A stretch of DNA of 64,000 nt from a virus. Position 1 is the first letter of the stretch. Each line of letters begins with the position of its first letter. Made by a program: the position numbers and the translations under genes. Shown here piece by piece: positions 12,737 through 51,613 of the stretch. The notes below the pieces were generated by a model. That model ran no database searches. It saw only the letters and a list, made by a program, of their open reading frames with translations, and was not told where the DNA came from. The stretch is from positions 62,001 to 126,000 of IMG/VR virus record IMGVR_UViG_3300034152_000478, one strand, 5' to 3'.

Positions 12737-12993
12737 TAATCTGGTGGCATTTCATCAAGGGGCTCAAGAGGCATTTGACGGGGTGGCAATTCGTACTCCA
12801 TCGGTGTGTAAGAATGGAATACTTCTACAGAAACGATAATAGCTGCTATCGCCTGCCTTGATCTAATATAGCCACCGCATTTTCTTACAAGCCTGTCGGC
12901 TTCGCGCACTCTTGCAAGCACTGCCTGCTTGAATGCTTCATCATGGTTTTCGTCCTTTAACATTGCATGGGCAATCGCTTCAGCTTCGCTCAT
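12736..12993 (-). CDS. Hypothetical protein with proline-rich tail
   Basis: 85 residues: a helical N-terminal half ([25 protein letters not shown]), a short hydrophobic stretch (AIAAIIVSVEVF), then a proline- and acid-rich tail (ELPPRQMPLEPLDEMPPD). It overlaps the end of the 580-residue glycosyltransferase gene by 14 bases. The family is not recognised. Confidence 0.45.
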   Translation of the reverse strand: MSEAEAIAHAMLKDENHDEAFKQAVLARVREADRLVRKCGGYIRSRQAIAAIIVSVEVFHSYTPMEYELPPRQMPLEPLDEMPPD

Positions 12994-14722
12994 TGTTAGT
13001 CTTCTCCATTAAGGCTTCAAACTTAGAAATCACCATTTCTACTGGCACATTAAGACAGCCGCGCTGTGAACAGTTCTTCCATTCGCCATGTTGGCAACGC
13101 ATACGCTTATCGCACGGCAACATTGCTATTGCGAGGTTTTTGTTAAGCGGCATATTCTTGATAGGATTTGTAAATGTCCAGACAGCAACGGTCGGTATTG
13201 CGAAACAGGCTCCAATGTGAAGTAATCCCCCGTCATTACCAATGAGACCTTTCCCTCCTGCAATAACTGCGGCAGATTCTTTAATACTGAGTCTTCCGCA
13301 GAGGTTAACGATTTTTCCTTCGCACAATGAATGTCCGGCAGCATGAAGAATTTCTTCGGCTTCTTCTTTGTCATCTTGATCTCCAAGCAAAGCGATGTTA
13401 TAGTTGGGCAATAGATGTTGAATCAATTGGGCATAGTTATTATTGCCCCAATGCTTCAAACTCCAATGTTCTTCGTGCAAATATCCTGCTGCTATACAAA
13501 TGTAATCGCGCTCTGGCACCAGGCCAAGCTCAACGCCAGCTATTTCTCGGTTCTCCTGCGTGATAAAACACTCAACAGAAGGAAACCTCTTGGGCGGATC
13601 ACAATTCATGGCATATGCCAAATCCATGTTGTAGTGAGCTTCGTGCTTGGCCCATACTCCTCCCTTTTCGGATGGCCTAATAATCTCTTTGGACAACTGC
13701 ATTGCCGCCGAATAGTAAATCGATGCAGTCGGAGAGAGTAGTAGATAATCAAATCCTCCTATTGAATGCACAAAATGATTGTGGTGTCTTGTTATCAGAT
13801 CATCTATAACTGGCCAACCTTGCAAAATGTCGCTGCCGCGTGGCCATGTTAATACTGAGATTCTCGCATCCGGATAATGATAGCGCAGAGTCTTTAACAT
13901 CGGAGTTGTCAGAATCAAATTGCCCATACCGGAATTGATAATGAAACCAATTTTCAGGCGTTCCTTGTGTTCAAAAGCTTCCGCAGGAGCCTTGGCCTGT
14001 AAAAGTGGATGATCCTTGACTATTTCTGGAATATGGCTTGTGGTGTGGAATTTGACACCGGGACGCTTCATATGCTCGCCATGTAGCTCCCACTTGAATT
14101 CCCCATGAGTCTCAGTTCTGTCGCGTATTTTGGTTAACATGCGGCTGGGGTTGCGCACATAGGAGTAGTGATAGAATTGGGCTATTGATCCTCGTGCGTG
14201 TTTAAGTACCTCGCCAGTCGGCTTGACCAAGTGGTTGGGGTCGGTGAATCTATATCCCTTGTCGACCAGAAATAAACGAGGGAAATCAATCGTGACATAA
14301 TGGAAGGCGTCATTGACAAACGTAAGCGATGTAGCGTCAAAGAATTCTGCATCCGTTCTCTGCGTAGCTGCAACAATCTTCTCCACCTCTTCAGGTTCAT
14401 AGATTTCATCAGAATCCACAATCCACATAAAGCACTTGCCAGGCACAAAATCAAAGAAGCGACTTCGTTGTTGAAGTTGGGTTGGCTCGTTGAGTAAATG
14501 AAGTTCGAGACGATCTGTTCCAAATTCATTTTGTAATCTCTGCAGAATTTCTATTGTGCCATCGGTAGAGCGAAGTTTGCCACAAGTTTTTGCGCATGTT
14601 CCCCACGATCCTTCGAAAACAATTATCTTGTCAACATAATTTATAACGCTACGAATTGATGGCTCTATAAAGGCAGACTCCTCAAAAGCAACCATGTGAA
14701 CAATCAAGGGAAATTTAGACAT
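12980..14722 (-). CDS. Two-domain glycosyltransferase: GT2-type plus GT9-type
   Basis: A 580-residue fusion preceded by GGAG eight bases before the ATG. Residues ~1-235 are a GT-A-like domain (opening [20 protein letters not shown]) with the metal-binding VDSDEIY near residue 103. From ~255 ([21 protein letters not shown]) it is a GT9/heptosyltransferase-like GT-B domain with the nucleotide-binding signature [13 protein letters not shown] near residue 490. A late Cys cluster ([21 protein letters not shown]) resembles that in some heptosyltransferases. Together with the HldE-like pair at 35.5-36.9 kb this points to transfer of heptose or a related sugar onto a glycan chain. Donors and acceptors remain inferred. 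Confidence 0.75.
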
Positions 14723-35529: not shown

Positions 35530-36495
35530 TCACCGAGTAAAAGGTAATCCAAAAACTCCAGTTATCTCATCTGCAGTCAAAACATAACTGCCCCTATGTC
35601 GCACAGTTCGCGAAGCAGCGTAGTTAGCATGTCGCATTGCATGATACATGCCAAGCCCATCTGCTTTATAACCACTGCGTGCTAAGGATAGCGCCAGAAA
35701 TGATATTACTGTATCTCCAGCACCACAAGTATCTGCCACCTCTACTGTGTGTGCCTCTTGATGCTGTAGTAGTTCGCCTCTTTGGTATAGGTCCATACCG
35801 GCAGCCCCTTTTGTGTGTAGTAGGAATGTATCTTCCAGTTGTTCCGAGAGTTCATTGGGCTCCAGGATGGTCTTTTCCATCTCTGCCTGATTAGGGGTAA
35901 CAATGGTCAAGCCCTTGATAGATCGATACGTAGGTCGCTTGGGATCAAGTATTGTGAGAACGCCGCGAGCATTGCACAAATCCACTACGGACTGTATAAA
36001 GTCATCGTCAAGAGTACCCTTGTTGTAGTCTGAAAGAATAACCAGGCGCACATTCCACTCAGTTAATAGATGGCCAATTGCTTCAATCCACTGATCACGC
36101 ATTAGATCATCGACATTGATTTCATGCGGCTCCAGCTCTTTGTCGAGACGACAGACTTGCTGCCCTGCCCAAACGCGTATCTTAGTCGGAATAATGTAGT
36201 CTGGACAACCGAAGAGGCCACGATCGACAATATTTTGTTCGCGCAACATGAGGCTAAGCTGGGTTTCTTTTAGCGCCAAGTCGGGCGCTATGTGTCGTTC
36301 TTCATCCAGATATATAAAAACACACTGTTGGTCGCGGGCGATCTGGGCTGCGACATTGGCTGCTCCTCCAAGACTGTATTCGTCTTTGTTGAACAGGCAG
36401 ACTGGTACCGGCGCTTCTGGACTAATGCGTGTGCTTTTGCAATCCCACTTAACGTCCAGCATGGCATCGCCGATTACCATAATACTACTGTCCAT
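35530..36495 (-). CDS. PfkB-family sugar kinase, HldE kinase-domain type
   Basis: 321 residues from MDSSIMVIGDAMLDVKW, with GGGGAG just upstream. The opening IGDAMLDVKW, TRISPEAPVPVC, YSLGGAANVA and the C-terminal ADTCGAGDTVISFLAL (catalytic Asp in GAGD) are the pattern of the kinase half of HldE (D-glycero-beta-D-manno-heptose 7-phosphate kinase, RfaE domain I). In bacteria that half is normally fused to a nucleotidyltransferase; here that half appears to be the next gene upstream. Product: heptose 1,7-bisphosphate. This fits the GT9/heptosyltransferase-like domains elsewhere in the window. Confidence 0.8.
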   Translation of the reverse strand: MDSSIMVIGDAMLDVKWDCKSTRISPEAPVPVCLFNKDEYSLGGAANVAAQIARDQQCVFIYLDEERHIAPDLALKETQLSLMLREQNIVDRGLFGCPDYIIPTKIRVWAGQQVCRLDKELEPHEINVDDLMRDQWIEAIGHLLTEWNVRLVILSDYNKGTLDDDFIQSVVDLCNARGVLTILDPKRPTYRSIKGLTIVTPNQAEMEKTILEPNELSEQLEDTFLLHTKGAAGMDLYQRGELLQHQEAHTVEVADTCGAGDTVISFLALSLARSGYKADGLGMYHAMRHANYAASRTVRHRGSYVLTADEITGVFGLPFTR

Positions 36496-36922
36496 CTTTA
36501 CTCCCCTTGATTGCTCTAAACACATCGCTGACACTGGTGCCGTTCATGTTCTCAATCATCATGATTTCATCAGCGTATCCAGCACCGGGCAGATGCGCGA
36601 CCTGCGTATGTTTAAGTTCGTGTGAGTGAAAAACAATAAGGGAGTTTTCCGAATCTTTAATGCAGCGCTCAAAGAAGTCTTCAGCGTATCGGTCGAGGTC
36701 TGGATCAGAAACAATCTTAACACTATCGACACAACCCAGCTCCAACAGTATCTCACGCCGCTCCATCGCGGTTAGCGGCAGACATCCCTTTTTCTTGATG
36801 GTGTAGTCGTCGTCATTGATTAGGACGATAAGCGTGTCACAATGTTCCCTACAAACCTGAAGAGTCTTCACATGATGTGGCATGAGTAGGGCAAAGCAGC
36901 CCATCTTGATTCCGTATCTCAT
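36485..36922 (-). CDS. Cytidylyltransferase-like nucleotidyltransferase, HldE C-domain type
   Basis: 145 residues. The fold is suggested by the N-terminal MGCFALLMPHHVKTL (diverged from GxFDxxHxGHxxLL), INDDDYTIKKKG, LTAMERREILLELGCVDSV and a late ENMNGTSVSDVF, where HldE/RfaE2 and TagD proteins have a substrate loop and TSxxI. The usual HxGH appears here as MPHHVK, so catalysis needs testing. With the adjacent kinase it would make ADP-heptose-like donors. The two genes overlap by 11 bases. Confidence 0.65.
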   Translation of the reverse strand: MRYGIKMGCFALLMPHHVKTLQVCREHCDTLIVLINDDDYTIKKKGCLPLTAMERREILLELGCVDSVKIVSDPDLDRYAEDFFERCIKDSENSLIVFHSHELKHTQVAHLPGAGYADEIMMIENMNGTSVSDVFRAIKGSKDGQ

Positions 36923-40447: not shown

Positions 40448-40972
40448 TTACGGCTTTCGCCAGGTTATACATATCACCTTGGCTATAATGTCCTTCTTCT
40501 TGATCGGCCCATAGTCGCGTGAGTCCATGGACCTTTGACGATTATCCCCCATGACCCAGTATTCATTTGATCCCAGCGTATAAGTTCTCGATCGTACTTT
40601 TAGCGGCTTGTAGTCATAAAGGTATGGCTCCTCCAGAACCTTTTCTCGTCCTCGAATTGACTGAACGATAATACCACTCTTGTTGACCGTAACAGTTTCG
40701 CCAGGCAGCCCTATTACCCGCTTGATCACATCCACATCAGGACGATTGATCGTTATAATGTCTCCTCTATCCACATTGGTTGTGAGATAAGTGACACACA
40801 TGTCCCCATGATTCAAAGCAGGAAACATCGAAAAGCCTGATACCTGACAAAGACGAATCTTACATAGTATGAATATGGCCACGGAAAGCAGGATGGCCAA
40901 TCTGATCCATTGTGTGATGTTAGTTTTTGCGCGGCAGCCTTTTGAGTTGGTCGAGGATTTTTCCTGCATCAT
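40448..40972 (-). CDS. lepB: Signal peptidase I
   Basis: 174 residues from the ATG at 40972 (GGAGG eight bases upstream). One N-terminal membrane anchor (LAILLSVAIFILCKIRL) is followed by the catalytic serine in SGFSMFPAL near residue 47, the lysine in DVIKRVIGLPGE near 83, and the conserved GDNRQRSMDSRDYG near the end. These are all the diagnostic boxes of type I signal peptidases. It cleaves exported preproteins at the outer face of the cytoplasmic membrane. A viral copy is rare; candidate substrates are exported products of this or a linked region. Conserved motif copy B lies 209 bases upstream. Confidence 0.9.
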   Translation of the reverse strand: MMQEKSSTNSKGCRAKTNITQWIRLAILLSVAIFILCKIRLCQVSGFSMFPALNHGDMCVTYLTTNVDRGDIITINRPDVDVIKRVIGLPGETVTVNKSGIIVQSIRGREKVLEEPYLYDYKPLKVRSRTYTLGSNEYWVMGDNRQRSMDSRDYGPIKKKDIIAKVICITWRKP

Positions 40973-41696
40973 TTGCAAAGCCTCCCGTGTAACACGCAAC
41001 TGAACAACGGTTTAAATCTGCACTCCAATAAGCTTCTATCAATTGCGGCTCATGAAACAGGATAATGTTGGGTACGTTGTATATGAATGCCGCGTAGCCG
41101 AGTAGTCCATCGGGCGCTATAACTAAGCTGGCTCCCAGTGTGTATCGCAATGCTTCCAGCAGGGAAGTCTTGCCACGATGGTCCTCTATAATACTATCGG
41201 TCCAATTTGCTGGTCGACTACCAACTTTTTTCCCTAAAAGCACAATTTTTTTGCCGATAAATTCAGCCAGCTCATTAATACATTTGTTTGTGAGCCCCCT
41301 TGTGCCACCTCCGCCATCGGCCACCAGGGCCACGTAGTCGCCGCGTGATACTTCTACGATCGGCATGGGTACGTCAATACATAGAGCGTCCACGCACGTT
41401 GTGAGGGCTGTAGCGACGTTCCAGACGCGCTTAGGAACCACACTCCAGAACTGGCCATTTGGATAGCTATTGACAGTGTATTGTAAACATACACCATAGC
41501 CACGAGCAGCCTGAGAGACCAGTTGCCAATATTCTCTCAATGGCTCTTCGTATGTGCTGGCCCTACGCTCAGCCTCGAAGTGGTCGTAATAGACTCGCTG
41601 CCCAGGAGGTACGGTGCGACGGATGATGTTTAGTAGCTTGCAGCTTAAGATGACACTATCACCCAAGCCTCCGCTACCTATGAATCTCGTCTGCAT
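40920..41696 (-). CDS. GT9-like (heptosyltransferase-like) protein
   Basis: 258 residues. FIGSGGLGDSVILSCKLLNII at the start matches the GT9 opening (GxGDxxLxTP type). SLLEALRYTLGASLVIAPDGLLGYAAFIYNVPNIILF corresponds to the donor-site region SLxELxxLIxxAxLxIgxDSGpxHxA, with PDGLLGYAA in place of the usual DSGPMHLA. A transferase or a diverged sugar-binding relative is possible. The gene carries a conserved regulatory motif inside its reading frame (41181-41222). The start overlaps the methyltransferase stop. Confidence 0.65.
   Translation of the reverse strand: MQTRFIGSGGLGDSVILSCKLLNIIRRTVPPGQRVYYDHFEAERRASTYEEPLREYWQLVSQAARGYGVCLQYTVNSYPNGQFWSVVPKRVWNVATALTTCVDALCIDVPMPIVEVSRGDYVALVADGGGGTRGLTNKCINELAEFIGKKIVLLGKKVGSRPANWTDSIIEDHRGKTSLLEALRYTLGASLVIAPDGLLGYAAFIYNVPNIILFHEPQLIEAYWSADLNRCSVACYTGGFANDAGKILDQLKRLPRKN
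41181..41222 (-). promoter_or_regulatory. Copy B of the conserved 40-bp motif, inside a coding gene
   Basis: Minus strand: GTAGT, six bases, GCAAATTGGACCGATA, GTATTATAG, AGGAC. It matches copy C at 27 of 30 positions from GCAAAT to AGGAC, although here the bases also encode residues ANWTDSIIED of the GT9-like protein. It points toward signal peptidase I, whose start is 209 bases downstream. An internal promoter for the 41 to 20 kb unit is the simplest reading. Confidence 0.7.
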
Positions 41697-42340
41697 TATT
41701 CAAAGTACTCCAACTGAGGAAAAAGCGTCGTCGGATCTTCGTGGTAATGATAATGTATCTTGCCAACCCAGTAGTGACGGATCTCCCAAATGTGCCTGAA
41801 GCCTCTCTGTCCGTGTCCTTCCCACATGGCATTGAATACCGGATCTCGGAAAAGTTTCTGTTCAAACAGCTCTGCCATTCGCTGCAGAACGCTATATTGT
41901 GGTCGCTTTGCTATATGTAGTACGCCCTCTATCAGCCTACATAGATTCACATGGCCAAAATGTGGCTTGGCTGTCATGAATTCGAAGTCGCTACCAGGCA
42001 GCGCAAAGAAGCCTCGTTTGCATGTACGATTTATCTGCCTAATGGCCGCAGGTAGGTCTTCAATGTGCTCAAATGTGTGACTCGAATACATAAAGTCGAA
42101 GTAGTTGTCTGGATAATCACGCAGCACTGAGACTGCATCGCCCTCCAGCAACTCTCTATCTCCGACATTCAATCCACGTCTATGTCTCTGGGCGTTCGTG
42201 TCCACCATGTCGATGATGTGCGTCGCCTTCGGATATGGCTTATCACCTCCACCAATATCCACAACACGATCATTAGGCCCAATTCCGAAATCAATATGTA
42301 AAAGGCCAGCATATCGTCCGTCTCCTGTGAAGAGTTTCAT
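41696..42340 (-). CDS. SAM-dependent methyltransferase (class I, Methyltransf_11-like)
   Basis: 214 residues. Motif I is NDRVVDIGGGDKPYP near residue 24, acidic motif II THIIDMVDTNA, motif IV FDFMYSSHTFEHIED, then INRTCKRGFFALPG. These indicate a Rossmann class I methyltransferase of the glycan or small-molecule type rather than a DNA enzyme (no NPPY). The C-terminal ~90 residues are helical and His/aromatic-rich. Start and stop overlap both neighbours as ATGA. The acceptor is unknown; its neighbours suggest a sugar. Confidence 0.75.
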   Translation of the reverse strand: MKLFTGDGRYAGLLHIDFGIGPNDRVVDIGGGDKPYPKATHIIDMVDTNAQRHRRGLNVGDRELLEGDAVSVLRDYPDNYFDFMYSSHTFEHIEDLPAAIRQINRTCKRGFFALPGSDFEFMTAKPHFGHVNLCRLIEGVLHIAKRPQYSVLQRMAELFEQKLFRDPVFNAMWEGHGQRGFRHIWEIRHYWVGKIHYHYHEDPTTLFPQLEYFE

Positions 42341-43206
42341 TTAACTCTCCTCGATAGAAAATCTGGCAGAGTAGGCGATTGAAAACCTGCGGCTCCTTTG
42401 TGACCTCCTCCACCTCTTGCCTTGCACATTTCTCCGCACTCAACATGCTCTTTGTTGCTATACAGTGACATTGTGTATTGGTTGCCATCAAAGACGAATG
42501 AAACGCAGAGATCATACTCGTCCAGAAGACCACCAAAAGCCAGAGAAGAAGCTCGACCGAGATTTATTGCAAACACACTGTAGTCTTCCAACTCAGTTTC
42601 AAATCCCCACGATTTCACATATTCCTTGTAAAACTGACTCTGGAATTTCTGTGCGATTTTCCCAGCTTCTATACAGTCTGTCACTGCTTCCAGTGCTGCC
42701 TCTTGGCTGTAGTCAATAGCGAAAAGCTTGCTCCACACTTCCTCTTCGGGACCAGTTTCTCCCATCTCTATGCCCATTTTGAATGGAATAGTATCTTCAA
42801 TGGAATGAATCCAGCGATCCCAGTCATCAACGATTCTCAGCGCAAAAGGAATACTCACTTGCGGCATTATATATTGCCAGGTCAACAATGCGCCACATCC
42901 ATCTTCGCTGCGTACACCAGGTAGACTGTGTTGTACGCCTTCTGGATCACCCTTAATAGCTGTCTTATGATGGTCAATCCACGTTACATGTCGAGTTATA
43001 GCCAACAGCTTGTCCCAATCGCCGGGTTTTTGCAATGAGAAATCTATAATCCAAACTTCTTCGCCAGGCTCAATGTCATCAAATGGCACTTCCCTATTGT
43101 AATCCATTTCCACAAACTTAATTGTGTACTCTTGGTGGCTTAAGCTTAGGCGAACCACGGCAGCAGCCGCACGTCCATCAAGATCATTGTGATGTAGAAC
43201 TATCAT
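42337..43206 (-). CDS. DHH-family phosphoesterase
   Basis: 289 residues. DHH motifs: LHHNDLDGRAAAAVV (motif I), WIIDFSL (II), TWIDHHKTAIKG (III, DHH), a D-x2-D pattern in IVDDWDRWI (IV), and the C-terminal DHHA1 glycine-rich GGGGHKGAAGF. This is the layout of oligoribonuclease/pAp or cyclic-dinucleotide phosphodiesterases. It likely degrades short RNA or signal nucleotides, or pAp formed when PAPS donors are used; an APS kinase gene lies two genes upstream. GAGGA precedes the ATG. Confidence 0.8.
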   Translation of the reverse strand: MIVLHHNDLDGRAAAAVVRLSLSHQEYTIKFVEMDYNREVPFDDIEPGEEVWIIDFSLQKPGDWDKLLAITRHVTWIDHHKTAIKGDPEGVQHSLPGVRSEDGCGALLTWQYIMPQVSIPFALRIVDDWDRWIHSIEDTIPFKMGIEMGETGPEEEVWSKLFAIDYSQEAALEAVTDCIEAGKIAQKFQSQFYKEYVKSWGFETELEDYSVFAINLGRASSLAFGGLLDEYDLCVSFVFDGNQYTMSLYSNKEHVECGEMCKARGGGGHKGAAGFQSPTLPDFLSRRVK

Positions 43207-43534
43207 CTTGTTCCTCTCTCAGATTGTTTAGTAGATCATCCAGAATCATCTTTACTTCTTGTCCAGGTCCTTCGTTGGCTATTATCCAGTCCCGCTGTAG
43301 GACGATGGCTCGATCACTATGGTGTCGCTTCCAAAATGCGGCATCCATTTCGAAAGGCATCCAACCAAAGCAGCGTATGCGCAACAGCCTTCCCTCCTTG
43401 AAGAAGCCTGATGGTATATCTATTTTGCCATCCTCTGGAATCTCATCACAAAATATCAATTCGCTATTAACAGGCTTCTCAAAGTTAGGTTGCACGATAG
43501 CAATGATTGCACCCGGCAATGTTCGCACAATCAT
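43184..43534 (-). CDS. Hypothetical protein, 116 residues
   Basis: Soluble, mixed alpha/beta (IVRTLPGAIIAIVQPNF, GFFKEGRLLRIRCFGWMPF), ending in an acidic/serine-rich tail. No motif recognised. It overlaps the APS kinase gene by 4 bases and the DHH gene by 23 bases, so it is part of that coupled group. Confidence 0.5.
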   Translation of the reverse strand: MIVRTLPGAIIAIVQPNFEKPVNSELIFCDEIPEDGKIDIPSGFFKEGRLLRIRCFGWMPFEMDAAFWKRHHSDRAIVLQRDWIIANEGPGQEVKMILDDLLNNLREEQDDSSTSQ

Positions 43535-44265
43535 ATGATCTTCCTCTTTTTGAGATATTTAACAACTTGCTTTACGCACTGCTCAACAGTTTTCGATTCT
43601 GTATCTAATTTAAGCTCTGCTTCATAAGGTATTTCATATGGATCATCCACGCCAGTAAAACCCATTATTTCGCCACGTCTTGCTTTGGCGTACATACCTT
43701 TCACATCGCGACGCTCACATTCTTCAACTGAGCAATCAGCATAAACCTCAATGAAGTTGTACATGCGTTGGCGTAGTTCTTCACGTGCCTCGCGGAAAGG
43801 CGATATGAAAGTACATATAGTAACTACTCCATTGCGAGCTAAGCGCTCAGCCACAAAACGAATGCGTTGCAAGTTCTCTGCTCGATCTTCTTTTGAAAAG
43901 CCCAGATCAGATGTCAAGTCTTCCCGTACAATATCTCCATCCAGACGTTCAACTTTGACACCAGCTTGTCTTAGTCGTTCGGCTGTGGCATCTCCAACGG
44001 TAGTTTTGCCAGAACAAGGCAGTCCCGTGAACCAAAGCACACAGCCAGTATCTGTCGTCACCGAGAATAGCTTATTGAAAACGCAGTCGTATGCAAAGTA
44101 TACTCCAGTTTTTGCTGTTTCCATTAAAAGACTAAACGTCACAGCCACATGAACGCTGCCAGTCAGGATGAATGACCCAATGAATTGGAATATCAGTGCA
44201 AATATTCTGTAGAGCCCAGCTTTAGTGAGTAGAATTCTGGGCTGAAGTTTTCTCCAATTCTTCAT
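43531..44265 (-). CDS. cysC: Adenylyl-sulfate kinase with N-terminal membrane (DUF2061-like) domain
   Basis: 244 residues. Residues ~10-70 hold two hydrophobic segments (YRIFALIFQFIGSFILTG; HVAVTFSLLMET), the DUF2061 layout. From ~75 it is APS kinase: LWFTGLPCSGKTTVG (Walker A near 84), RLDGDIVRE, LGFSKEDRAENLQRI, FISPFREAREE and GVDDPYEIP, all signature boxes of CysC. It phosphorylates APS to PAPS, the universal sulfate donor. The membrane anchor suggests sulfation near the envelope. No sulfotransferase is recognised in the window, so the end use is open. Confidence 0.82.
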   Translation of the reverse strand: MKNWRKLQPRILLTKAGLYRIFALIFQFIGSFILTGSVHVAVTFSLLMETAKTGVYFAYDCVFNKLFSVTTDTGCVLWFTGLPCSGKTTVGDATAERLRQAGVKVERLDGDIVREDLTSDLGFSKEDRAENLQRIRFVAERLARNGVVTICTFISPFREAREELRQRMYNFIEVYADCSVEECERRDVKGMYAKARRGEIMGFTGVDDPYEIPYEAELKLDTESKTVEQCVKQVVKYLKKRKII

Positions 44266-44645
44266 ATGCTATCCTCCAACTCGTCAATGATTGCCTGTAC
44301 TTCACGCGGCACCTCGCTGGACAAGCCAGCCCTGATCTCAGTGCCGGAAATACGCTTGACATCTTCGGGTGCTTCCACAATGTAGTATCCGACTTGTCTG
44401 CCTATAATCACACCATCTATGTCAGGTATGATAATCACCTTTAACAACCCAGACCGCAGCTCGTCTTCATAGCAAGCTTCTATCATTCTCTTGCGTTGGA
44501 ATGCTGACCATTTTTCATGGCCGTCTCTAACTGCCACACAAACTGGCTTTTTGTTCATCAGGAAAGTGTCGATAATGTGTTTATGTCCACAGTGGAATGG
44601 ACTCCATCTGCCAATGAATAGATTATACTTCACAAACTCCCCCAT
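44262..44645 (-). CDS. HxGH nucleotidyltransferase (NMNAT/cytidylyltransferase-like)
   Basis: Up to 127 residues from ATG 44645; a GTG at 44633 overlapping the upstream stop as GTGA is an alternative start. The fold motifs FIGRWSPFHCGHKHII (HxGH) and ISGTEIRAGL match nicotinamide-mononucleotide adenylyltransferases and related adenylyl/cytidylyltransferases. In ATP sulfurylases the second motif is also ISGT-like, so an APS-forming role paired with the adjacent CysC is conceivable, but length and motif favour an NMNAT-type enzyme. Confidence 0.65.
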   Translation of the reverse strand: MGEFVKYNLFIGRWSPFHCGHKHIIDTFLMNKKPVCVAVRDGHEKWSAFQRKRMIEACYEDELRSGLLKVIIIPDIDGVIIGRQVGYYIVEAPEDVKRISGTEIRAGLSSEVPREVQAIIDELEDSI

Positions 44646-45520
44646 ACGATCCCATTGTGTGCTAAATCAGGCACGTCTAAAATCCTAATCTCGTGGCACT
44701 GATTCACTTTCTTGATTTCAGTTGTCCCAGTTACTCTTAGTTGATGGTTCAGCTCAGTGATGTGAATTGAATGGCTTCCTACGCCTCTTACTACTCGTGG
44801 ACAGTGCGTCGATGAGCCGACCAGTATTCTGTCCTTGCTAATAGCAAGTCCCCTTGTATATTTGCAATCCCCCTTATAGACCAACTCTTTGGCTCTTGCT
44901 CCACGTCGTTTCTGCATATTGTAGCGTCGTATCATAGACTTTGGCGAATGACAGAAGTACATAAAGTCGCCAACGATCGCCACATTGTGCAATTGTGAGC
45001 CGACATGGACATTGTCAAGCACCTTAGTGAACCCAACATCGACACATTTAATGTTGCTTGGAAACTGGTAATTATGCTCGACCACCCAGAAGTTTCCATC
45101 TTGTTTCCAGATTGAATTCAGGTGATTGTTCTTGTGGTTTTTATATCCTTTCTTGTCGTTCCATTTTCTGGCAAATCCCCAGGTGTATGGCTTAGCAAAA
45201 ACGCCGCTTGTCCGCATGCGTTCTATGCGACCACGATACGTATTTACTATGTACAGCATTGAAGTTTCTGGATCATAGTAAGCCTGATGTACGCCATGGA
45301 TCTTTGTCGGATATGTAGCTTCTACTTTGAATTTTTTGTTGAGTATAGCCACGGTGTCTGTTAGTTTTCTGTCACCGCTTCTTTGGCAGACGAACAAGAA
45401 ATCTTCACTCCAAGATACACCAAAACAGCTATCCTTAAAAACCTTTTTGTACCTTCCTTTATGCACCAAAAATAGACCGCAGGGTGTTGCTACCAGGTAT
45501 CTCAAATTTGAGGCTGCCAT
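44630..45520 (-). CDS. Beta-propeller protein, paralog 1 of 3
   Basis: About 296 residues from MAASNLRYLVATPCGLFLVHKG (weak AGG upstream; a GTG 21 bases earlier is possible). Repeated short strands such as FLFVCQ, MLYIVNT, FWVVEHN and FMYFCHS suggest a five- to six-bladed propeller. Landmarks shared with the other two copies: xATPxGLF at the start, HQAYYDPET, NT..(G/N)R(I/V)E, NHLNSIW, LHNV near the middle, RGLA, and the ending NQCHEIR ... DLAHNGI. No signal peptide. A ligand-binding or scaffold function in the glycan block is likely; catalytic activity is not evident. Confidence 0.7.
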   Translation of the reverse strand: MAASNLRYLVATPCGLFLVHKGRYKKVFKDSCFGVSWSEDFLFVCQRSGDRKLTDTVAILNKKFKVEATYPTKIHGVHQAYYDPETSMLYIVNTYRGRIERMRTSGVFAKPYTWGFARKWNDKKGYKNHKNNHLNSIWKQDGNFWVVEHNYQFPSNIKCVDVGFTKVLDNVHVGSQLHNVAIVGDFMYFCHSPKSMIRRYNMQKRRGARAKELVYKGDCKYTRGLAISKDRILVGSSTHCPRVVRGVGSHSIHITELNHQLRVTGTTEIKKVNQCHEIRILDVPDLAHNGIVWGSL

Positions 45521-46164
45521 ATCAATACACCTATTCCGCACCCTACTTTTCCATCAGGTCGCCTATGGCTGATTTCTCTTGTCTCAAACTGTCTCTTCAC
45601 TCCCTCCCAGACTCTCCAGACGCGGAACTTCGGCCCGTGCTTATTCTTGATATCATGGAACACGATAATACCGCCAGGTCTGACAAAACTTCGGTACATA
45701 CACCAATCCTTGCGGCAGCCAGCTTCCGTATGATCACCATCTATAAACAACAAATCAAGCTGACGACACTTTAGTGCAGTCTCTACGGCATCTTGGCTCT
45801 CAATCTTATGAGAATCACCTATTATGATTTCATGTTTGAAAGTCGGCTTATGTCTCGGAATTGCTGACACAACACTTTGACCCGTGCCTTCCCACTGTTT
45901 GGGAGTCGGCATATCCATCCCAATACCAAAAACATTCTCGCTTTGCCAGCTCAACACATTGCCTATCAGCACAAAGTTGGCACCATAGGCCAGCCCTATT
46001 TCCATGAAGTTAATCTGCTCAGTGCGATCTTTTAGATGGTTAGTGGCAAAATCCAGGAAGTCTACTATCTCCTTTTTGCGCTGCAATGAAGACTGAATCT
46101 TGCCTGTGACTTTCTTGAAATACTCAAGACGATCATATTCTGCAGCTATTAACTTCTTGTTCAC
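45502..46164 (-). CDS. Class I methyltransferase (Methyltransf_24/cephalosporin-hydroxylase-like), paralog 1 of 3
   Basis: 220 residues from a GTG that overlaps the upstream stop as GTGA and has GGAG eight bases before it. Motifs: FMEIGLAYGANFVLIGNVL (SAM loop), then DLLFIDGDHTEAGCRKDW and FVRPGGIIVFHDI. The same boxes occur in the genes at 48707 and 50873. This family methylates sugars in macrolide, cephalosporin-like and LPS pathways. It is nested between two beta-propeller genes, implying that the propeller and methyltransferase act on the same product. Confidence 0.72.
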   Translation of the reverse strand: MNKKLIAAEYDRLEYFKKVTGKIQSSLQRKKEIVDFLDFATNHLKDRTEQINFMEIGLAYGANFVLIGNVLSWQSENVFGIGMDMPTPKQWEGTGQSVVSAIPRHKPTFKHEIIIGDSHKIESQDAVETALKCRQLDLLFIDGDHTEAGCRKDWCMYRSFVRPGGIIVFHDIKNKHGPKFRVWRVWEGVKRQFETREISHRRPDGKVGCGIGVLIWQPQI

Positions 46165-47027
46165 TTGTGTGCTCCGAACGGAATGCCGTTGTGCGCCCAA
46201 TCCAATTCCGAAATGAGTCGCAGACAGAATACCTGGTTCACTTGTGGTAATCTGATTACGTCTCTGATTTCCAGCGTCTCCTGGTCGACAATGGTCACAT
46301 ATCCAGCTCGATCATCTTTCCTCTCTTGTGGGGTGCCCCAGCATGATTGGCCTATCACGAAGAAGTCTGAGCCCACTGCGAACCCACGAGGATAATCCTT
46401 GAAGTGTGGTTTGGGCAAATGAAACTCCTTGCGGCCGACTATTTGCTTGGTCGCCATGTCCATTTGAATCAGCGTGCGGTCCAATGACATTAGGCTGTAC
46501 AGCATGCCGTCTCTAATGAAGATGTTGTGACCCTCGTTTTCAAGCTGGTAGGTATTGATTGGATGTTCAAGATCACTGTCATAGAACTCTTGCACCCTGC
46601 AGTTGAAGTCACGCTTCCCATTCTGCTCACCGACATAGATACACTCGCCATATCTGTAGATCGAATTAATATGATTCCAGTTGTCGGATCGCCCGGTGTA
46701 GTTGAAGCTGGCAAATTCGTGCACCGCTGGGTCCCAAATCTCTACTCGGTTGCGGTCGGTATTAGTCATATAAAGTAGCTCGTGCTTGTCATCATACAGT
46801 GCTTGATGAACACGACACACGCTCTTTGCGGGCACTTTGTTAAGTAGCCGCAGACTGTGGTCAAACAGCCAAATTTCCGTATGTAGCGTTGGATGTCGAT
46901 GACAAACATACAGAGTGTATTCGTCCCAGCTAATGCCGTAGCAGGCTCCTCGCTGGACGAGGTGCACATTCTGACCGTCCACGAAAAAGAGGCCGCGTGC
47001 TGTTGTTACCAGTAGTTTAATACTCAT
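46161..47027 (-). CDS. Beta-propeller protein, paralog 2 of 3
   Basis: 288 residues beginning MSIKLLVTTARGLFFVDGQ. Shares with paralogs 1 and 3: SWDEYTLYVCHR, VHQALYDDKHELLYMTNT.RNRVEIWD, NHINSIYRYGECIYVGE, GHNIFIRDG, RGFAVG, and the C-terminal VNQVFCLR ... WAHNGIPFG. The sequence identity is moderate and spread along the whole length, so the duplications are ancient but kept side by side. Start and stop overlap both neighbours. No export signal. Confidence 0.7.
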   Translation of the reverse strand: MSIKLLVTTARGLFFVDGQNVHLVQRGACYGISWDEYTLYVCHRHPTLHTEIWLFDHSLRLLNKVPAKSVCRVHQALYDDKHELLYMTNTDRNRVEIWDPAVHEFASFNYTGRSDNWNHINSIYRYGECIYVGEQNGKRDFNCRVQEFYDSDLEHPINTYQLENEGHNIFIRDGMLYSLMSLDRTLIQMDMATKQIVGRKEFHLPKPHFKDYPRGFAVGSDFFVIGQSCWGTPQERKDDRAGYVTIVDQETLEIRDVIRLPQVNQVFCLRLISELDWAHNGIPFGAHK

Positions 47028-47869
47028 AGTACTATTCCGTTATGTGCCAGGTCAGGTTCTCCCAAGGCTCTCACTTCGTATACTTGGTTGCCTTTGGGGA
47101 TACAGACTGAGCCAATCTCTTTGAACTCTTCGTCCATCTTAATGATCCAGGCGTCAAATAGCTCCATGCGCTTCTCTCTGCCACAGTGCATTGAAGCTCC
47201 CATTAGGAAGTAGCCGTCGCAGCGAGCAAGTCCCCTGGAATATGTACGCGGAAAGGCATCTTCAAAGCTTCTGTTTTGTACAATACGATCTTCGACCATA
47301 GAGTACTTGGCTATCTCACTCGTCAATGATACGGTTGTATATATGAATTCGCCTTCAACGTACACATTGTGAATCTGACTTGCAACCACCCATGCTTGTG
47401 GACGACCCACTATCTCAGGAGGCATCTTAATTACCCTGGAAGGATGATGTTTCTTGTTGTGTTCACAGGACCACCAGCATTCGCCATCAAACCATACAGA
47501 GTTAATATGGTTGTAGTCGCAGCCTGCTACTGGGGTCCAGTTATTAACCAGTATCTTATTGCCAGCAATATCAAAAAAGTCAACACGATTCTGGTGTGTG
47601 TTGGTTACGGCGATTGTCTTGGTTTTTGGATCATAGTGTGCTTGATGATTGTCTTTCACTTGTGGCAAATGCACTTCATCCATCACGCCGAAATCTTCAG
47701 GGTGCAAGGAGACCATTTTAGTTTGAGTATTTTGATTTATCCGCTGAAAAGCAAAGATTCGAGTCTTGCTCCAGGTTAATCCGTAGACATGTCCCTCATA
47801 GACCAACTCACAGTCTCTACCATCTATGTAAAAGATGCCCCTTGGTGTCGTGGCTAAGCAGCGCATCAT
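47024..47869 (-). CDS. Beta-propeller protein, paralog 3 of 3
   Basis: 281 residues from MMRCLATTPRGIFYIDGR, chosen because GGAGG lies just upstream; an in-frame start 42 bases earlier lacks one and does not align with the paralogs. Shared landmarks: GLTWSKTRIFAF, DNHQAHYDPKTKTIAVTNT.QNRVDFFD, NHINSVWFDGECWWSCEHN, IHNVYVEGEF, SRGLARCD, and NQVYEVR ... DLAHNGIVL at the very end. A ligand or protein-interaction role in the glycan programme is inferred. Confidence 0.7.
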   Translation of the reverse strand: MMRCLATTPRGIFYIDGRDCELVYEGHVYGLTWSKTRIFAFQRINQNTQTKMVSLHPEDFGVMDEVHLPQVKDNHQAHYDPKTKTIAVTNTHQNRVDFFDIAGNKILVNNWTPVAGCDYNHINSVWFDGECWWSCEHNKKHHPSRVIKMPPEIVGRPQAWVVASQIHNVYVEGEFIYTTVSLTSEIAKYSMVEDRIVQNRSFEDAFPRTYSRGLARCDGYFLMGASMHCGREKRMELFDAWIIKMDEEFKEIGSVCIPKGNQVYEVRALGEPDLAHNGIVL

Positions 47870-48705
47870 ATTAAATACTCCCTCCAGTTGTCTCTGATTT
47901 CCGGCAACCAATCATCTGTAAAGTCCACAAGTTCGTTGGGTAGTGCGACAGGCTGATTTCTCAACGGCTCTGTTTGTCCTTCAGCAAATCCATCTATTGT
48001 ATTGCCCTGTGATGGCCAGCGTAAGAATCTCTCGTTGTACCATTTCGTTAGGCTTGGTCTATCAAACGTGAGCACTTTATCTCTTATAAGCCGGGGATGT
48101 TTTACCCAGCACAAGTGAGTCATTTGCGAACGCTTCCTTGACAGCGAGACACGCCTATCCTTTATGACATCTTTACCATCAACCAGAAAATGATTAGACG
48201 CAGTATAACGCCCGCCTTTCTGAAAGCGGATAAACCGTCCCAGGTGCGACGCAGGGAACCACCAGCGAAGATTGTAGGCATACTGATATTCTCCAATCTG
48301 TACGTGTTGAACCTCGTCATACATGCGGAAAATGCGCAAGATATCCCAGAGTCCCTCGCCCCCATAGAATTCGTCAGTGTCCATAAGATGAATCACATCA
48401 CCAGGCTCTATGTCTGAAAATTCCAGCAGGTAGTTCTTGTTAATGCCATGTTGAGCCTCTCTACTGTGCCCACGCATTCTTTCTATGGGAATAGGCGGTG
48501 CTATAAATATCTGATCAGGATACTTGGCCTCCATTTCCTTCAGTACAGCCATGGTGTTGTCGGTTGAGCGTTCTGGAAGATTCCGGTTGATAGCAAGCGA
48601 TCCTTCTGCAATCAGAATTCTGTCGATATGCTCTATCCGATTCTCTATTACTCGTCTTGCCAGGTCTTCTTCATTGTAGACTTCCATTAAGCCTATAACA
48701 CGCAT
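47866..48705 (-). CDS. Glycosyltransferase, GT2/GT17-like
   Basis: 279 residues from MRVIGLMEVYNEEDLARRVI (GGAGG upstream, spaced 5). GT-A features: VYNEEDLARR at the start, ILIAEGSL, RSTDNTMAVL and the metal-binding HLMDTDEFY near residue 110, similar to the GT2-like half of the 580-residue protein. The C-terminal part is basic (RDRRVSLSRKRSQ). It overlaps the third beta-propeller and follows the second methyltransferase paralog. Confidence 0.65.
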   Translation of the reverse strand: MRVIGLMEVYNEEDLARRVIENRIEHIDRILIAEGSLAINRNLPERSTDNTMAVLKEMEAKYPDQIFIAPPIPIERMRGHSREAQHGINKNYLLEFSDIEPGDVIHLMDTDEFYGGEGLWDILRIFRMYDEVQHVQIGEYQYAYNLRWWFPASHLGRFIRFQKGGRYTASNHFLVDGKDVIKDRRVSLSRKRSQMTHLCWVKHPRLIRDKVLTFDRPSLTKWYNERFLRWPSQGNTIDGFAEGQTEPLRNQPVALPNELVDFTDDWLPEIRDNWREYLI

Positions 48706-48706
48706 A

Positions 48707-49309
48707 TTATCCTCCAACGTACACTACACCAAAACCATGAAAGCCAGTGGTATGCTTACAGCGCTTACGGATTTTCTCCCAGGCTTTTTTCGGCTTGTTG
48801 TTAACATCATCGAACACTATCAGTCCACCCTTTCGGACCAATGGCCTATACATGGTATAATCTTCCAGACAGCCCTCAACACTGTGATTACCGTCTATGA
48901 ACAGGAGATCAATCCCACGACCCTGTAGATCATCCTTGAGTTTATTTAGCGTTTTCTTTTCGTGTGAGTCGCCCTCAATAATTCCCCATAGGAACTGTGG
49001 ATTTAAGGCTGCGACTGCTTGGTCTGGGGGTAGCGTAGTGTGCTTATCATATGTCATATTGAAGATATCTATGCCAATTGCCACTACTGTTTTGCCAGCT
49101 TGCAATAGACAGTTTCCAATCAACACAAAGCTGCCACCCATGTGAACGCCTATCTCTACAAAGACAACTTCTTTCTGTTCCTTGAAGTGCTGTAAGATAA
49201 AATCAACCAGCCTGCAGGCACCATGCTGTGTTTGCATAATGACTTCTCGGCGATCCTTACGCCCCTTGAGCAGTCGATTGAGTTCTTCCCTGATTTCTTT
49301 CTCGTTCAT
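48707..49309 (-). CDS. Class I methyltransferase (Methyltransf_24-like), paralog 2 of 3
   Basis: 200 residues. FVEIGVHMGGSFVLIGNCLL and LLFIDGNHSVEGCLEDYTMYRPLVRKGGLIVFDDV align with the same boxes in paralogs 1 and 3. QTQHGACRLVDFILQHF before motif I is also paralleled. It most likely methylates a sugar or lipid-linked intermediate. The start overlaps the FkbM-type gene. Confidence 0.72.
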   Translation of the reverse strand: MNEKEIREELNRLLKGRKDRREVIMQTQHGACRLVDFILQHFKEQKEVVFVEIGVHMGGSFVLIGNCLLQAGKTVVAIGIDIFNMTYDKHTTLPPDQAVAALNPQFLWGIIEGDSHEKKTLNKLKDDLQGRGIDLLFIDGNHSVEGCLEDYTMYRPLVRKGGLIVFDDVNNKPKKAWEKIRKRCKHTTGFHGFGVVYVGG

Positions 49310-49938
49310 GGCTTACTAAAGAAAGTGTCTCCCTGACATTTGCCCGTTGCTTTATAGCCGTATGGGCGCAGCAGGGCTAAGGCTTCTTCAGCCCCCACCT
49401 GATGGGTTTCGATGCAGAATACTCGCGGCAAGACCGGACAGTCCTGAATACCACGAAGCGCTGCCAGCTCATTGCCTTCGATATCCAAAACAAACAAGTC
49501 GACTTCTGTTATTCCATGTCTTTCTATTAGTGTCTTGTAGGTTATCGTGTTTACTTTATGGCGTTCTAATCGAAGCTCACCCCTCTTAAGTGTGTCCCAT
49601 ATCTCCCACTTGTGCTTGAAGACAATCGACCCTCGTCCTGTCATTTTGTTTTTGTTGTCTGATTCATTCAGAGGCAGCATGAATTCTACTTCTTCGTCGT
49701 CAGCATCACTCAGCGCATACTTAAGATTGAGACAGTTAGGCCGGTTCTTTTTCAGAGCACTGAAGCAATAGGGATTACATTCAATATTAATGCCGTGCCA
49801 CTCGTTCTTCGCCTCAAACCAGCGACAGGTGCTGATAAACTTTCCATCATTGGCACCACACTCTATGAAAGTGCCACCTTTATGCTTGCGTAGCCAAGGG
49901 AATCTCTTCAAAAGGGCTTCAGTCAGCTTTGTTTTCAT
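49306..49938 (-). CDS. FkbM-family methyltransferase
   Basis: 210 residues. GTFIECGANDGKFISTC is the SAM-binding motif I (FkbM type), ECNPYCFSALKKN follows as motif II, and VNTITYKTLIERHGITEVDLFVLDIEGNELAALRG is the family's hallmark segment. FkbM proteins O-methylate sugars or polyketides. The start lies 20 bases inside the end of the UDP-glucose dehydrogenase-like gene, linking precursor supply with decoration. Confidence 0.82.
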   Translation of the reverse strand: MKTKLTEALLKRFPWLRKHKGGTFIECGANDGKFISTCRWFEAKNEWHGINIECNPYCFSALKKNRPNCLNLKYALSDADDEEVEFMLPLNESDNKNKMTGRGSIVFKHKWEIWDTLKRGELRLERHKVNTITYKTLIERHGITEVDLFVLDIEGNELAALRGIQDCPVLPRVFCIETHQVGAEEALALLRPYGYKATGKCQGDTFFSKP

Positions 49939-50869
49939 TGCGATAGCGATTCTTTACCCAGTCTTGTTCTGGTCGATAGAATGTGTTCAAAGCCTGGACC
50001 ACCTGTAAGATGGCAGGGTCAAGCCCCAGCTCTTGACAACATGCCTCCAGCGCCCCAATGTCTTTCATGAAGCAGCTCCCACCGGCACCACGCAGGCCGT
50101 CTGGTCCTGGCACGTAGGTGTGCGAAGGACCAATGCGATCATCGAGAGCAATGCCTCGCCGCACTACATCGTAATTACATCCAAGCATGCCAGCGATATC
50201 GTAATAGAAGTTGAAGAGCATTAGCTTGGTAAACAATGTGACATTAGATCCATATTTGATTAGCTCGGCCGCCGTGTTAATGCAAAGAATCAGGCGATCA
50301 TCAAAATTACAGACATGTGGATTGGTGTTGATTCTGCGTAGGACATCCACCAGTCTCGTGTCATGCGCTTCATCGCTCCCAATTACAACCCTTGTGGCAT
50401 CCATTAGTGTTCCAACAGGATCAGCTTCGGTCAAGAATTCCGGGCTGAAGTGTAAATGTAGGCCACGAAATTGTGTAGCAAATTTACTTGTTGTGCCTGG
50501 TGGCACCGTAGACTTGATGCACACAGGTAGGCGTCCATTCGCTTCTATCGCGTGCAGAATGTTCAGCTTATTGAGAACATCCTTGACAATAGATAGATTG
50601 GCTTTCTCACATCGTCCATCTTCACAGTAAGCCAGTGGCGGAGTTGGCACACATACCAGTACGATATCTGCACGTTCTACTAAATGATTCAGCGAAGGAA
50701 CCGATAAAGGCAAATTCCATCCTGGAAATCTGCGTCCAAAATTAGGCTCTATATCATAGATAATGACGTTATGATATCCTCGATTTCTTAATGCCACATA
50801 GTGGGCAGCTCCCACAAAACCGCCACCAACAATTCCAATAACTGGCCCAGGGAAATCTTCGCAGCCCAT
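49919..50869 (-). CDS. UDP-glucose/GDP-mannose dehydrogenase family, short form
   Basis: 316 residues with GAGGTG before the ATG. IGIVGGGFVGAAH is the NAD site, VCVPTPP and STVPPGTTSKFA follow, then FSPEFLTEADP, and the catalytic cysteine in GAGGSCFMKDIGAL near residue 264. Usual members have ~390-450 residues; the C-terminal UDP-binding domain is missing or very short here. It should oxidise UDP-glucose to UDP-glucuronate or a similar sugar. With the decarboxylase-like SDR at 9119-10072 this would give UDP-xylose. The truncation leaves its activity an open question. Confidence 0.75.
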   Translation of the reverse strand: MGCEDFPGPVIGIVGGGFVGAAHYVALRNRGYHNVIIYDIEPNFGRRFPGWNLPLSVPSLNHLVERADIVLVCVPTPPLAYCEDGRCEKANLSIVKDVLNKLNILHAIEANGRLPVCIKSTVPPGTTSKFATQFRGLHLHFSPEFLTEADPVGTLMDATRVVIGSDEAHDTRLVDVLRRINTNPHVCNFDDRLILCINTAAELIKYGSNVTLFTKLMLFNFYYDIAGMLGCNYDVVRRGIALDDRIGPSHTYVPGPDGLRGAGGSCFMKDIGALEACCQELGLDPAILQVVQALNTFYRPEQDWVKNRYRNENKAD

Positions 50870-50872
50870 AGT

Positions 50873-51613
50873 TCACCTCACCATAATGCGATCAAAGCGT
50901 ACAACACCTACGCCACGGTCATGTCCGTTGCCAAATACCCAGTGTTTATAGAAATGTGAAATGCGGTTCCACAACATTACGCCTTTATTAACATAGCAGC
51001 CAGTAACATCATGAACAGCCACAAGGCCACCACTTTTAACCATGCCTGTATAGTAGTCCCAATCGTGATTGCAAGTTGGGCAATCGTGTCCGCCATCAAT
51101 GTAAAGCAAGTCAAGTCTCCGCCCTCCTCTAAGCGCTGCGATCTGTGCACCGTGTATGGTTTCCTTCTTGGTAGAATCACCCTTGACAAAATCCCAGGTG
51201 AACTTAGGCCCAAGATTCTTAATGCACTCATCAGCCCCCATCAGTTTCTGGTAGGCCCAGCCACGTCCAGGTCGCTCTGGAGTCGGTATCTCTGGCATGT
51301 CGACGGCAATCCCGTGCACCTTGCCAAAGGCTTTCATTAACATATTGCCCATCAAAACAAAGTTGCCGCCACGATTAGTACCTATCTCCATAAAGACAAT
51401 CTCGGAAGGATACTGATGGCGAAAGTAATCTATCATGAATTGCGTGCATGCCAGGGCTTCTCCTTTGCGCTGCATAATACAGTCAGCAGGAGGACATTTG
51501 TTACCCGTGAACTTCACGATCCGTTCATACTCAGCGGTAATATCCGGGATCATGCTTCCTTTGTTGATAATGCGCTTGATCAGCGCGTCACTTTGCTCTC
51601 TGGTGAAGTCCAT
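50873..51613 (-). CDS. Class I methyltransferase (Methyltransf_24-like), paralog 3 of 3
   Basis: 246 residues, GGGGGA before the ATG. FMEIGTNRGGNFVLMGNMLM and LLYIDGGHDCPTCNHDW with VKSGGLVAVHDV align with paralogs 1 and 2. The C-terminus (WVFGNGHDRGVGVVRFD) parallels the GCGIGVLIW and GFGVVYVG ends of the others. Probably a sugar methyltransferase. It is the first gene of the glycan block in transcription order. Confidence 0.72.
   Translation of the reverse strand: MDFTREQSDALIKRIINKGSMIPDITAEYERIVKFTGNKCPPADCIMQRKGEALACTQFMIDYFRHQYPSEIVFMEIGTNRGGNFVLMGNMLMKAFGKVHGIAVDMPEIPTPERPGRGWAYQKLMGADECIKNLGPKFTWDFVKGDSTKKETIHGAQIAALRGGRRLDLLYIDGGHDCPTCNHDWDYYTGMVKSGGLVAVHDVTGCYVNKGVMLWNRISHFYKHWVFGNGHDRGVGVVRFDRIMVR

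What the first reader, a model, noticed from the sequence alone, without database searches (positions are those of the whole stretch)
41696..51613. Phage glycan block: UGDH, glycosyltransferase, five methyltransferases, APS kinase and propellers
In about 10 kb the virus encodes a UDP-glucose dehydrogenase-like enzyme, a glycosyltransferase (with a GT9-like gene just beyond), three Methyltransf_24-type, one FkbM-type and one class I methyltransferase, an APS kinase for PAPS, and three beta-propellers, all coupled by overlaps. Together with the UDP-xylose-synthase-like SDR and the HldE pair it looks like a program for a methylated, possibly sulfated, xylose/heptose-containing glycan. The target could be the virion, the host surface (superinfection exclusion) or DNA.
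Basis: inference. Interest (0 to 1): 0.75.

Follow-up and report, generated by a model that had tools for sequence, protein, structure and literature searches.

The report
Phage sugar-making and methylation gene block
A large, previously unseen bacterial virus carries its own set of enzymes that look able to make the activated sugars glucuronic acid and xylose and to build and methylate a sugar chain, a known kind of phage gene cluster but here with an unusually compact sugar dehydrogenase and three related propeller proteins of unknown job.

Summary
The genes are real. Window 40.4-51.6 kb is one gap-free minus-strand gene run in a 151-kb tailed-phage record. It holds UGDH-like, FkbM, Methyltransf_11 and APS-kinase genes, three paralogous Methyltransf_24 enzymes and three paralogous six-bladed propellers. 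The glycan set continues outside: a true UDP-xylose synthase, a GDP-mannose dehydratase, two multidomain GT9-containing transferases, CgeB-like and GT2 transferases, and a PfkB (HldE-like) kinase.

This compact form is widespread in phages and small-genome bacteria and archaea, often next to an enzyme that uses UDP-glucuronate and sometimes next to true UXS, so UDP-Glc to UDP-GlcA to UDP-Xyl remains the best reading. (2) The HldE-type adenylyltransferase has lost HxGH (MPHH), so heptose is weak. (3) No Pfam sulfotransferase or ATP sulfurylase was found, so sulfation is unsupported although the APS kinase is genuine. (4) The 'GT9-like' neighbour is not confirmed.

Phage glycan clusters of this sort are described in cyanophages (P-SSM2, S-SSM7), so this is a new variant of a known kind. 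The acceptor (envelope, virion or DNA) is not established; envelope modification is most likely.

The parts
50873..51613 (-). Methyltransf_24 paralog a
   Evidence: Pfam PF13578 39.1 bits; paralog of the other two
49919..50869 (-). Compact UGDH-like dehydrogenase: N-terminal + central domain, no C-terminal domain; catalytic T, E, K, N, C, D kept; VPGPDG insert
49306..49938 (-). FkbM-family methyltransferase
   Evidence: Pfam PF05050 64.7 bits
48707..49309 (-). Methyltransf_24 / CmcI-like paralog b
   Evidence: Pfam PF13578 61.2 and RMNT_CmcI 38.4 bits; weak PDB match 6g7d methyltransferase
47866..48717 (-). Probable glycosyltransferase (GT17/GT2-like, DxDE motif)
   Evidence: subthreshold GT17; homologous to N-terminal GT domain of 12980-14722; AlphaFold2 model too poor to use
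47024..47911 (-). Beta-propeller 1
   Evidence: AlphaFold2 pLDDT 79.8, 24 strands; Foldseek propellers
46161..47027 (-). Beta-propeller 2 (paralog)
45502..46200 (-). Methyltransf_24 paralog c
   Evidence: Pfam PF13578 48 bits
44630..45541 (-). Beta-propeller 3 (paralog)
44262..44645 (-). HxGH nucleotidyltransferase (NMNAT-like; HxGH and ISGTEIR intact), overlapping the APS kinase
   Evidence: kinase+nucleotidyltransferase pairs recur in viral loci L018, L032, L036; both match one profile, phrog_10255
43531..44265 (-). APS kinase with N-terminal membrane DUF2061
   Evidence: Pfam 200.5 bits; TIGR00455 215.6 over cut-off 138.7
43184..43534 (-). 116-aa protein of unknown function
   Evidence: no family match
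42337..43206 (-). DHH phosphoesterase inside the run (not glycan-related)
   Evidence: phrog_4771 148.7 bits
41696..42340 (-). Class I methyltransferase (Methyltransf_11)
   Evidence: Pfam 35.1 bits
40920..41696 (-). Unassigned; tentative GT9-like
   Evidence: no Pfam match; hhalign 39% to phage GT9 domains
40448..40999 (-). Signal peptidase I-like (Peptidase_S26)
   Evidence: Pfam 109.5 bits
38926..39771 (-). GT2 glycosyltransferase
   Evidence: Pfam 57.2 bits
36919..37359 (-). Cupin (mannose-6-phosphate isomerase C-terminal type)
   Evidence: Pfam 26.3 bits
36485..36922 (-). HldE-type adenylyltransferase with HxGH replaced by MPHH
35530..36534 (-). PfkB sugar kinase, HldE/HldA-like
   Evidence: Pfam 66.5 bits; PDB 4e84 87.8 bits
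15644..19291 (-). 1215-aa multidomain transferase: GT4-like + DUF4214 + GT9 + GT2
12980..14722 (-). GT2/GT17-like + GT9 fusion
11519..12520 (-). Glyco_trans_1_2 (CgeB-like) glycosyltransferase
   Evidence: Pfam 44.4 bits
9119..10102 (-). UDP-glucuronate decarboxylase (UDP-xylose synthase)
   Evidence: 245 bits to human UXS1; next family 109 bits

Best explanation
The block is the core of a phage-encoded glycan module, encoded in the long minus-strand gene run that also holds replication and nucleotide-metabolism genes. A compact UDP-glucose dehydrogenase makes UDP-glucuronate, the phage's UXS decarboxylates it to UDP-xylose, and a GDP-mannose dehydratase opens a 6-deoxyhexose branch. Several glycosyltransferases build an oligosaccharide, and the FkbM, three Methyltransf_24 and one Methyltransf_11 enzymes O-methylate it. 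The propellers most likely bind or process the glycan or dock the methyltransferases (inferred). The product most likely decorates the envelope of the infected cell, where it would keep out competing phages. Shown by sequence: the families, catalytic residues, gene order, and linkage of the compact UGDH to UDP-GlcA-using enzymes in other genomes. Inferred: the substrates, the methylated product, the acceptor and the biological role.
For: Family assignments. Gap-free co-directional run. UGDH catalytic residues invariant across 82 aligned compact UGDHs. In 64 of 81 viral sequences an SDR directly abuts the compact UGDH; after clustering at 70% identity, 6 clusters show this and 3 clusters with upstream sequence do not. 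The one adjacent SDR searched against PDB (L050) matches UDP-glucuronate-epimerase-type enzymes best. In five bacterial or archaeal records the compact UGDH lies within 1.2 kb of a strong UXS homologue, 36-44% identical to the phage UXS. Propeller invariants recur near positions 44, 90, 135, 181, 226 and 276, at the start of one strand of each blade, which suggests a functional pocket. The genes lie with replication genes rather than with the + strand structural genes. A signal peptidase is in the run and the APS kinase has a membrane segment. Cyanophage precedent for surface-glycan clusters (PMC2984593, PMC3037559, PMC7824862).
Against: No flippase, polymerase or ligase was identified (not systematically searched). 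UXS and UGDH are about 40 kb apart. Nucleotide-metabolism genes are interspersed. The phage UGDH is a very long branch whose position is unresolved, so its substrate could have changed. Propeller function is unknown. PMC3037559 raises the possibility that such phage LPS genes are non-functional filler. The host is unknown.
Confidence: 0.5

Rival explanations
1. The glycan is built on virion proteins (capsid or tail), as in mycobacteriophages whose O-methyltransferase and glycosyltransferases modify capsid and tail tube.
For: Glycosyltransferase plus O-methyltransferase cassette of Corndog-type phages (PMC4351075, PMC11600133). UXS and three glycosyltransferases lie just beyond the + strand tail-type genes.
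Against: In those phages the cassette sits inside the virion operon; here it is on the opposite strand with replication genes. The nucleotide-sugar synthesis genes go beyond a simple virion-decoration cassette.
Confidence: 0.25
2. The enzymes make a methylated sugar-containing small molecule (secondary metabolite) rather than a polymer.
For: CmcI/RMNT, FkbM and Methyltransf_24 families are common in natural-product tailoring (established knowledge; matches). A halogenated sugar/amino-acid metabolite cluster has been proposed for cyanophages (PMC7824862).
Against: No NRPS, PKS or halogenase was seen among the proteins examined; several glycosyltransferases with GT9 modules point to an oligosaccharide.
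Confidence: 0.12
3. Unlinked metabolic genes collected in one run (NAD/PAPS/nucleotide supply and stray methyltransferases), with no single glycan product.
For: DHH phosphoesterase, NMNAT-like enzyme, ThyX, dCMP deaminase and UDG are interspersed. No sulfotransferase for the APS kinase.
Against: Two sets of retained paralogs (propellers, Methyltransf_24) interleaved with GT and UGDH, and the UGDH-UXS route, suggest one pathway.
Confidence: 0.08
4. The sugars hypermodify phage DNA.
For: Bacillus phage SP-15 carries a UGDH in a sugar gene group next to replication genes, and its DNA is known to carry glucuronate (own knowledge). ThyX and dCMP deaminase occur nearby.
Against: No hypermodification hallmark (base hydroxylase, hydroxymethyl-dUMP kinase or DNA glucosyltransferase) was recognised among the proteins read, though no dedicated search was made. 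FkbM and CmcI-type methyltransferases act on sugars or small molecules (established knowledge).
Confidence: 0.05

Closest known systems
LPS / capsular polysaccharide gene clusters of T4-like cyanophages (P-SSM2, S-SSM7, S-SM2)
   Same: Phage-encoded sugar-nucleotide enzymes, PfkB kinase, HIGH nucleotidyltransferase, cupin, several glycosyltransferases and methyltransferases in runs; S-SSM7 has UGDH + epimerases + GTs + methyltransferase
   Different: No propellers like these found in S-SSM7 (a search without positive control); its UGDH is longer (383 aa); here a true UXS, an APS kinase, GT9 fusions and three Methyltransf_24 paralogs, in a phage with no close relative in the collections
Virion-glycosylation cassette of cluster O mycobacteriophages (Corndog)
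   Same: O-methyltransferase next to glycosyltransferases in a phage
   Different: Located among the virion genes there, and no nucleotide-sugar synthesis was described in the passages read
Compact UGDH + SDR pair of phages (C48C1 and IMG/VR contigs)
   Same: Two-domain UGDH of 257-343 aa with the VPGxDG insert; adjacent SDR
   Different: The SDR tested resembles UDP-GlcA 4-epimerases, not UXS; the window protein is a long branch outside that clade
Mycobacterial sugar O-methyltransferase of PDB 6g7d (MeT1, name from own knowledge)
   Same: Same Methyltransf_24-type enzyme with the SAM and IDGxH motifs; only PDB sequence match
   Different: E=4e-4 only; acceptor unknown here

Membership tests
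UDP-glucose dehydrogenase (canonical) | N-terminal NAD domain and central dimerisation domain | tested here: met
   PF03721 62.6 bits, PF00984 59 bits
UDP-glucose dehydrogenase (canonical) | Catalytic Cys, Lys, Asn, Asp, Glu, Thr | tested here: met
   C266, K205, N209, D270, E144/E148, T121; invariant or nearly so over 82 sequences
UDP-glucose dehydrogenase (canonical) | C-terminal UDP-binding domain PF03720 | tested here: not met
   absent from protein and record; 14/14 controls ring
UDP-glucose dehydrogenase (canonical) | NCBIfam TIGR03026 cut-off | tested here: not met
   126.4 bits vs 189.8
UDP-xylose synthase | Best match to UXS and UXS sequence hallmarks (TSEVYGDP, YDExKR) | tested here: met
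   245 bits to human UXS1, next family 109
UDP-xylose synthase | Decarboxylates UDP-GlcA to UDP-Xyl | not testable with these tools
   needs enzyme assay
APS kinase | Equivalog model cut-off and active-site motifs | tested here: met
   TIGR00455 215.6 vs 138.7; DGD, GFSKEDR, KGMYAKAR, FTGVDDPYE
Sulfated-glycan system | A sulfotransferase | tested here: not met
   no PF00685, PF13469 or PF03567 in the record; other families not searched
ADP-heptose pathway (HldE) | Kinase domain | tested here: met
   PfkB 66.5 bits; 87.8 bits to 4e84
ADP-heptose pathway (HldE) | Adenylyltransferase HxGH motif | tested here: not met
   MPHH
Cyanophage-type polysaccharide cluster | Epimerase/dehydratases, sugar kinase, nucleotidyltransferase, several GTs in one phage | tested here: met
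   against the description
Cyanophage-type polysaccharide cluster | Product alters the host surface | not testable with these tools
   needs infection experiment
GT9 (gene 40920-41696) | Pfam PF01075 match | tested here: not met
   no match at E<=10; hhalign 39%

The most novel reading that the evidence does not exclude
The three propellers, interleaved with the Methyltransf_24 paralogs and matched by no Pfam, NCBIfam or PHROG family, are a new glycan-tailoring or glycan-recognising family that works with those methyltransferases; and the compact two-domain UGDH is a functional UDP-sugar dehydrogenase that does without the canonical C-terminal UDP-binding domain.
Probability: 0.2. Interest if true: 0.65.

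Novelty: new variant of a known kind. Interest (0 to 1): 0.48.

Why it matters
Phage glycan clusters are known but rarely tied to a defined product; here the UDP-GlcA to UDP-xylose route gives a specific, testable one. The side result may matter more: a UGDH without its C-terminal domain is common in phages and in small-genome bacteria and archaea, often beside UDP-GlcA-using enzymes. If active, it shows the textbook third domain is dispensable and gives a minimal enzyme to study.

Tried and rejected
Searches for propeller relatives: viral contigs and genome contigs by pattern, INPHARED tblastn, Pfam/NCBIfam/PHROGs and PDB profile (its top hit is SAKe6DR, apparently a designed repeat propeller, with no single domain significant) all gave nothing; only a fold match to an uncultured Caudovirales phage protein (TM 0.71/0.73, 16% identity). 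Methyltransf_24 relatives in viral contigs: none. AlphaFold2 of the GT failed (pLDDT 45.8), so no fold search was run on it. The UGDH tree puts the phage protein with the two full-length UGDHs on a long branch; I treat this as unresolved, not as evidence that it lost the domain separately. Considered and dropped: a split or frameshifted C-terminal UGDH domain (no PF03720 in the record; no detached C-terminal piece beside the compact UGDHs except two hits in other ORFs, one a separate 481-aa protein); Campylobacter-type phosphoramidate synthesis for the kinase + nucleotidyltransferase pair (recalled, not tested; the phage kinase keeps the APS-kinase motifs).
Full report
WHERE IT LIES. The window is 62001-126000 of a 150,882-base virus record. 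Flanking stretches hold a terminase, portal, a 2220-aa tape-measure protein and further tail-type proteins on the + strand, so it is a tailed phage. It has no close relative in the collections searched: terminase at best about 24% identity over most of its length in INPHARED, no capsid match, one 40% terminase fragment in IMG/VR. The DnaE-type polymerase has only 28-34% matches among those listed. The host is unknown.

THE OBSERVATION. From 51613 down to 40448 the minus strand is one run of genes without intergenic space; all junctions to 40920 overlap except one 3-bp gap. The matches to UGDH, the five methyltransferases and the APS kinase are above curated Pfam cut-offs and are not chance. 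The three Methyltransf_24 enzymes are paralogs (31-36%), and so are the three propellers (26-30%).

THE REST OF THE PROGRAMME. Elsewhere in the record are a UDP-glucuronate decarboxylase (9119-10102, 245 bits to human UXS1 against 109 for the next family), a CgeB-like GT, a GT2+GT9 fusion and a 1215-aa GT4+DUF4214+GT9+GT2 protein, a GT2, a PfkB kinase with an HldE-type nucleotidyltransferase and a cupin, and a GDP-mannose 4,6-dehydratase (378 bits, genome 17016-17990).

THE COMPACT UGDH. The protein has the NAD and central domains but not PF03720, which is absent from the whole record although all 14 control genomes ring. Relatives show that the short form is not simple decay. Two-domain UGDHs of 257-343 aa are common in viral contigs (81 sequences; 10 clusters at 70% identity counting the window's own), with catalytic residues invariant and a VPGxDG insert in most. 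In 64 of 81 an SDR directly abuts it; counted by cluster, 6 clusters show this and 3 with upstream sequence do not. The one such SDR searched against PDB, from L050, matches UDP-glucuronate-epimerase-type enzymes best (that 6zl6 and MoeE5 are UDP-GlcA 4-epimerases is own knowledge). The compact form also occurs in cellular records: Patescibacteria, DPANN archaea, Marinimicrobia, SAR86 and Bacteroidetes, 78 with ORFs mostly 260-340 aa, 30 of them with a UXS-like SDR within 1.2 kb. In five the neighbour is a strong UXS homologue, 36-44% identical to the phage UXS. Some of these contigs are short metagenome pieces and could themselves be viral. Almost no detached C-terminal domain was found beside them (two hits in other ORFs), with a positive control at 1e-20. 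Association with enzymes that consume UDP-GlcA is the main reason to believe this short enzyme makes UDP-GlcA. Caveat: the window protein is a long branch (1.71) that falls outside the viral clade, with the two full-length UGDHs, so its exact ancestry and substrate are unsure.

PROPELLERS. AlphaFold2 on the three-sequence alignment gives a six-bladed propeller, 24 strands, pLDDT 79.8. Foldseek finds propellers of many functions at 8-13% identity, so the fold is clear and the function is not; the best viral match is a protein of an uncultured Caudovirales phage. Residues invariant in all three recur about every 45 positions (44, 90, 135, 181, 226, 276), one set per blade at the start of a strand. 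Periodicity of the polar invariants at 45.5 has p=0.0006 against random positions but only 0.05 against gap shuffling. This suggests a central pocket, so binding or catalysis rather than a plain scaffold.

SULFATION AND HEPTOSE. The APS kinase carries a DUF2061 membrane segment and keeps the active-site motifs, but no sulfotransferase (PF00685, PF13469, PF03567) or ATP sulfurylase (PF01747) was found. PAPS could serve a host enzyme; a sulfated phage glycan is not supported. Small P-loop kinase + HxGH nucleotidyltransferase pairs recur beside compact UGDHs in L018, L032 and L036, and the phage's kinase and nucleotidyltransferase match the two ends of one profile, phrog_10255, so the overlapping APS kinase and nucleotidyltransferase genes may be one functional unit. 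The HldE-type adenylyltransferase has MPHH in place of HxGH, so ADP-heptose synthesis by the phage is doubtful.

WHAT IT MOST LIKELY DOES. A glycan module feeding UDP-GlcA and UDP-xylose, and perhaps a 6-deoxyhexose, into an oligosaccharide that is then methylated. Placement with replication genes, a signal peptidase in the run, the membrane segment of the kinase and the cyanophage precedent (PMC2984593, PMC3037559, PMC7824862) favour the envelope of the infected cell. Virion decoration (PMC4351075, PMC11600133) is the main rival. None of the activities, the acceptor or the effect is shown.

NOVELTY. Phage polysaccharide clusters with epimerases, sugar kinase, nucleotidyltransferase, cupin, GTs and O-methyltransferases are already described. 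This is a new variant: compact UGDH plus true UXS, interleaved propeller and Methyltransf_24 paralogs, and GT9 fusions, in a phage without close relatives. I found no paper on the compact UGDH in the held library, which is a limited search.

Noticed in passing
window 49919-50869; L018-L097; L101-L180: UGDH without the C-terminal domain is a widespread compact form in phages and in small-genome bacteria and archaea, often beside UDP-GlcA-using SDRs; I found no description of it in the papers searched.
   Followed up: partly
window 36485-36922: HldE-type adenylyltransferase with the HxGH motif changed to MPHH beside an apparently intact PfkB kinase.
   Followed up: partly
window 15644-19291: 1215-aa glycosyltransferase joining GT4-like, DUF4214, GT9 and GT2 domains.
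   Followed up: no
L018, L032, L036, L050: Compact-UGDH viral contigs also carry KdsA/KdsB-like, cupin, HldE-type nucleotidyltransferase and kinase+nucleotidyltransferase genes next to replication genes (read from the translations).
   Followed up: partly
L007:12682-14265: Protein that looks like a TROVE/Ro60-type RNA-binding protein in the phage record (read from the translation only).
   Followed up: no
L003:16735-18361: IS607-like resolvase gene next to a C5 cytosine methyltransferase gene near one end of the record (read from the translation only).
   Followed up: no
window 53408-54442, 54446-55120, 52461-53405: Phage IMP dehydrogenase/GMP reductase-like, uracil-DNA glycosylase and OB+HD proteins just upstream of the block.
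   Followed up: no
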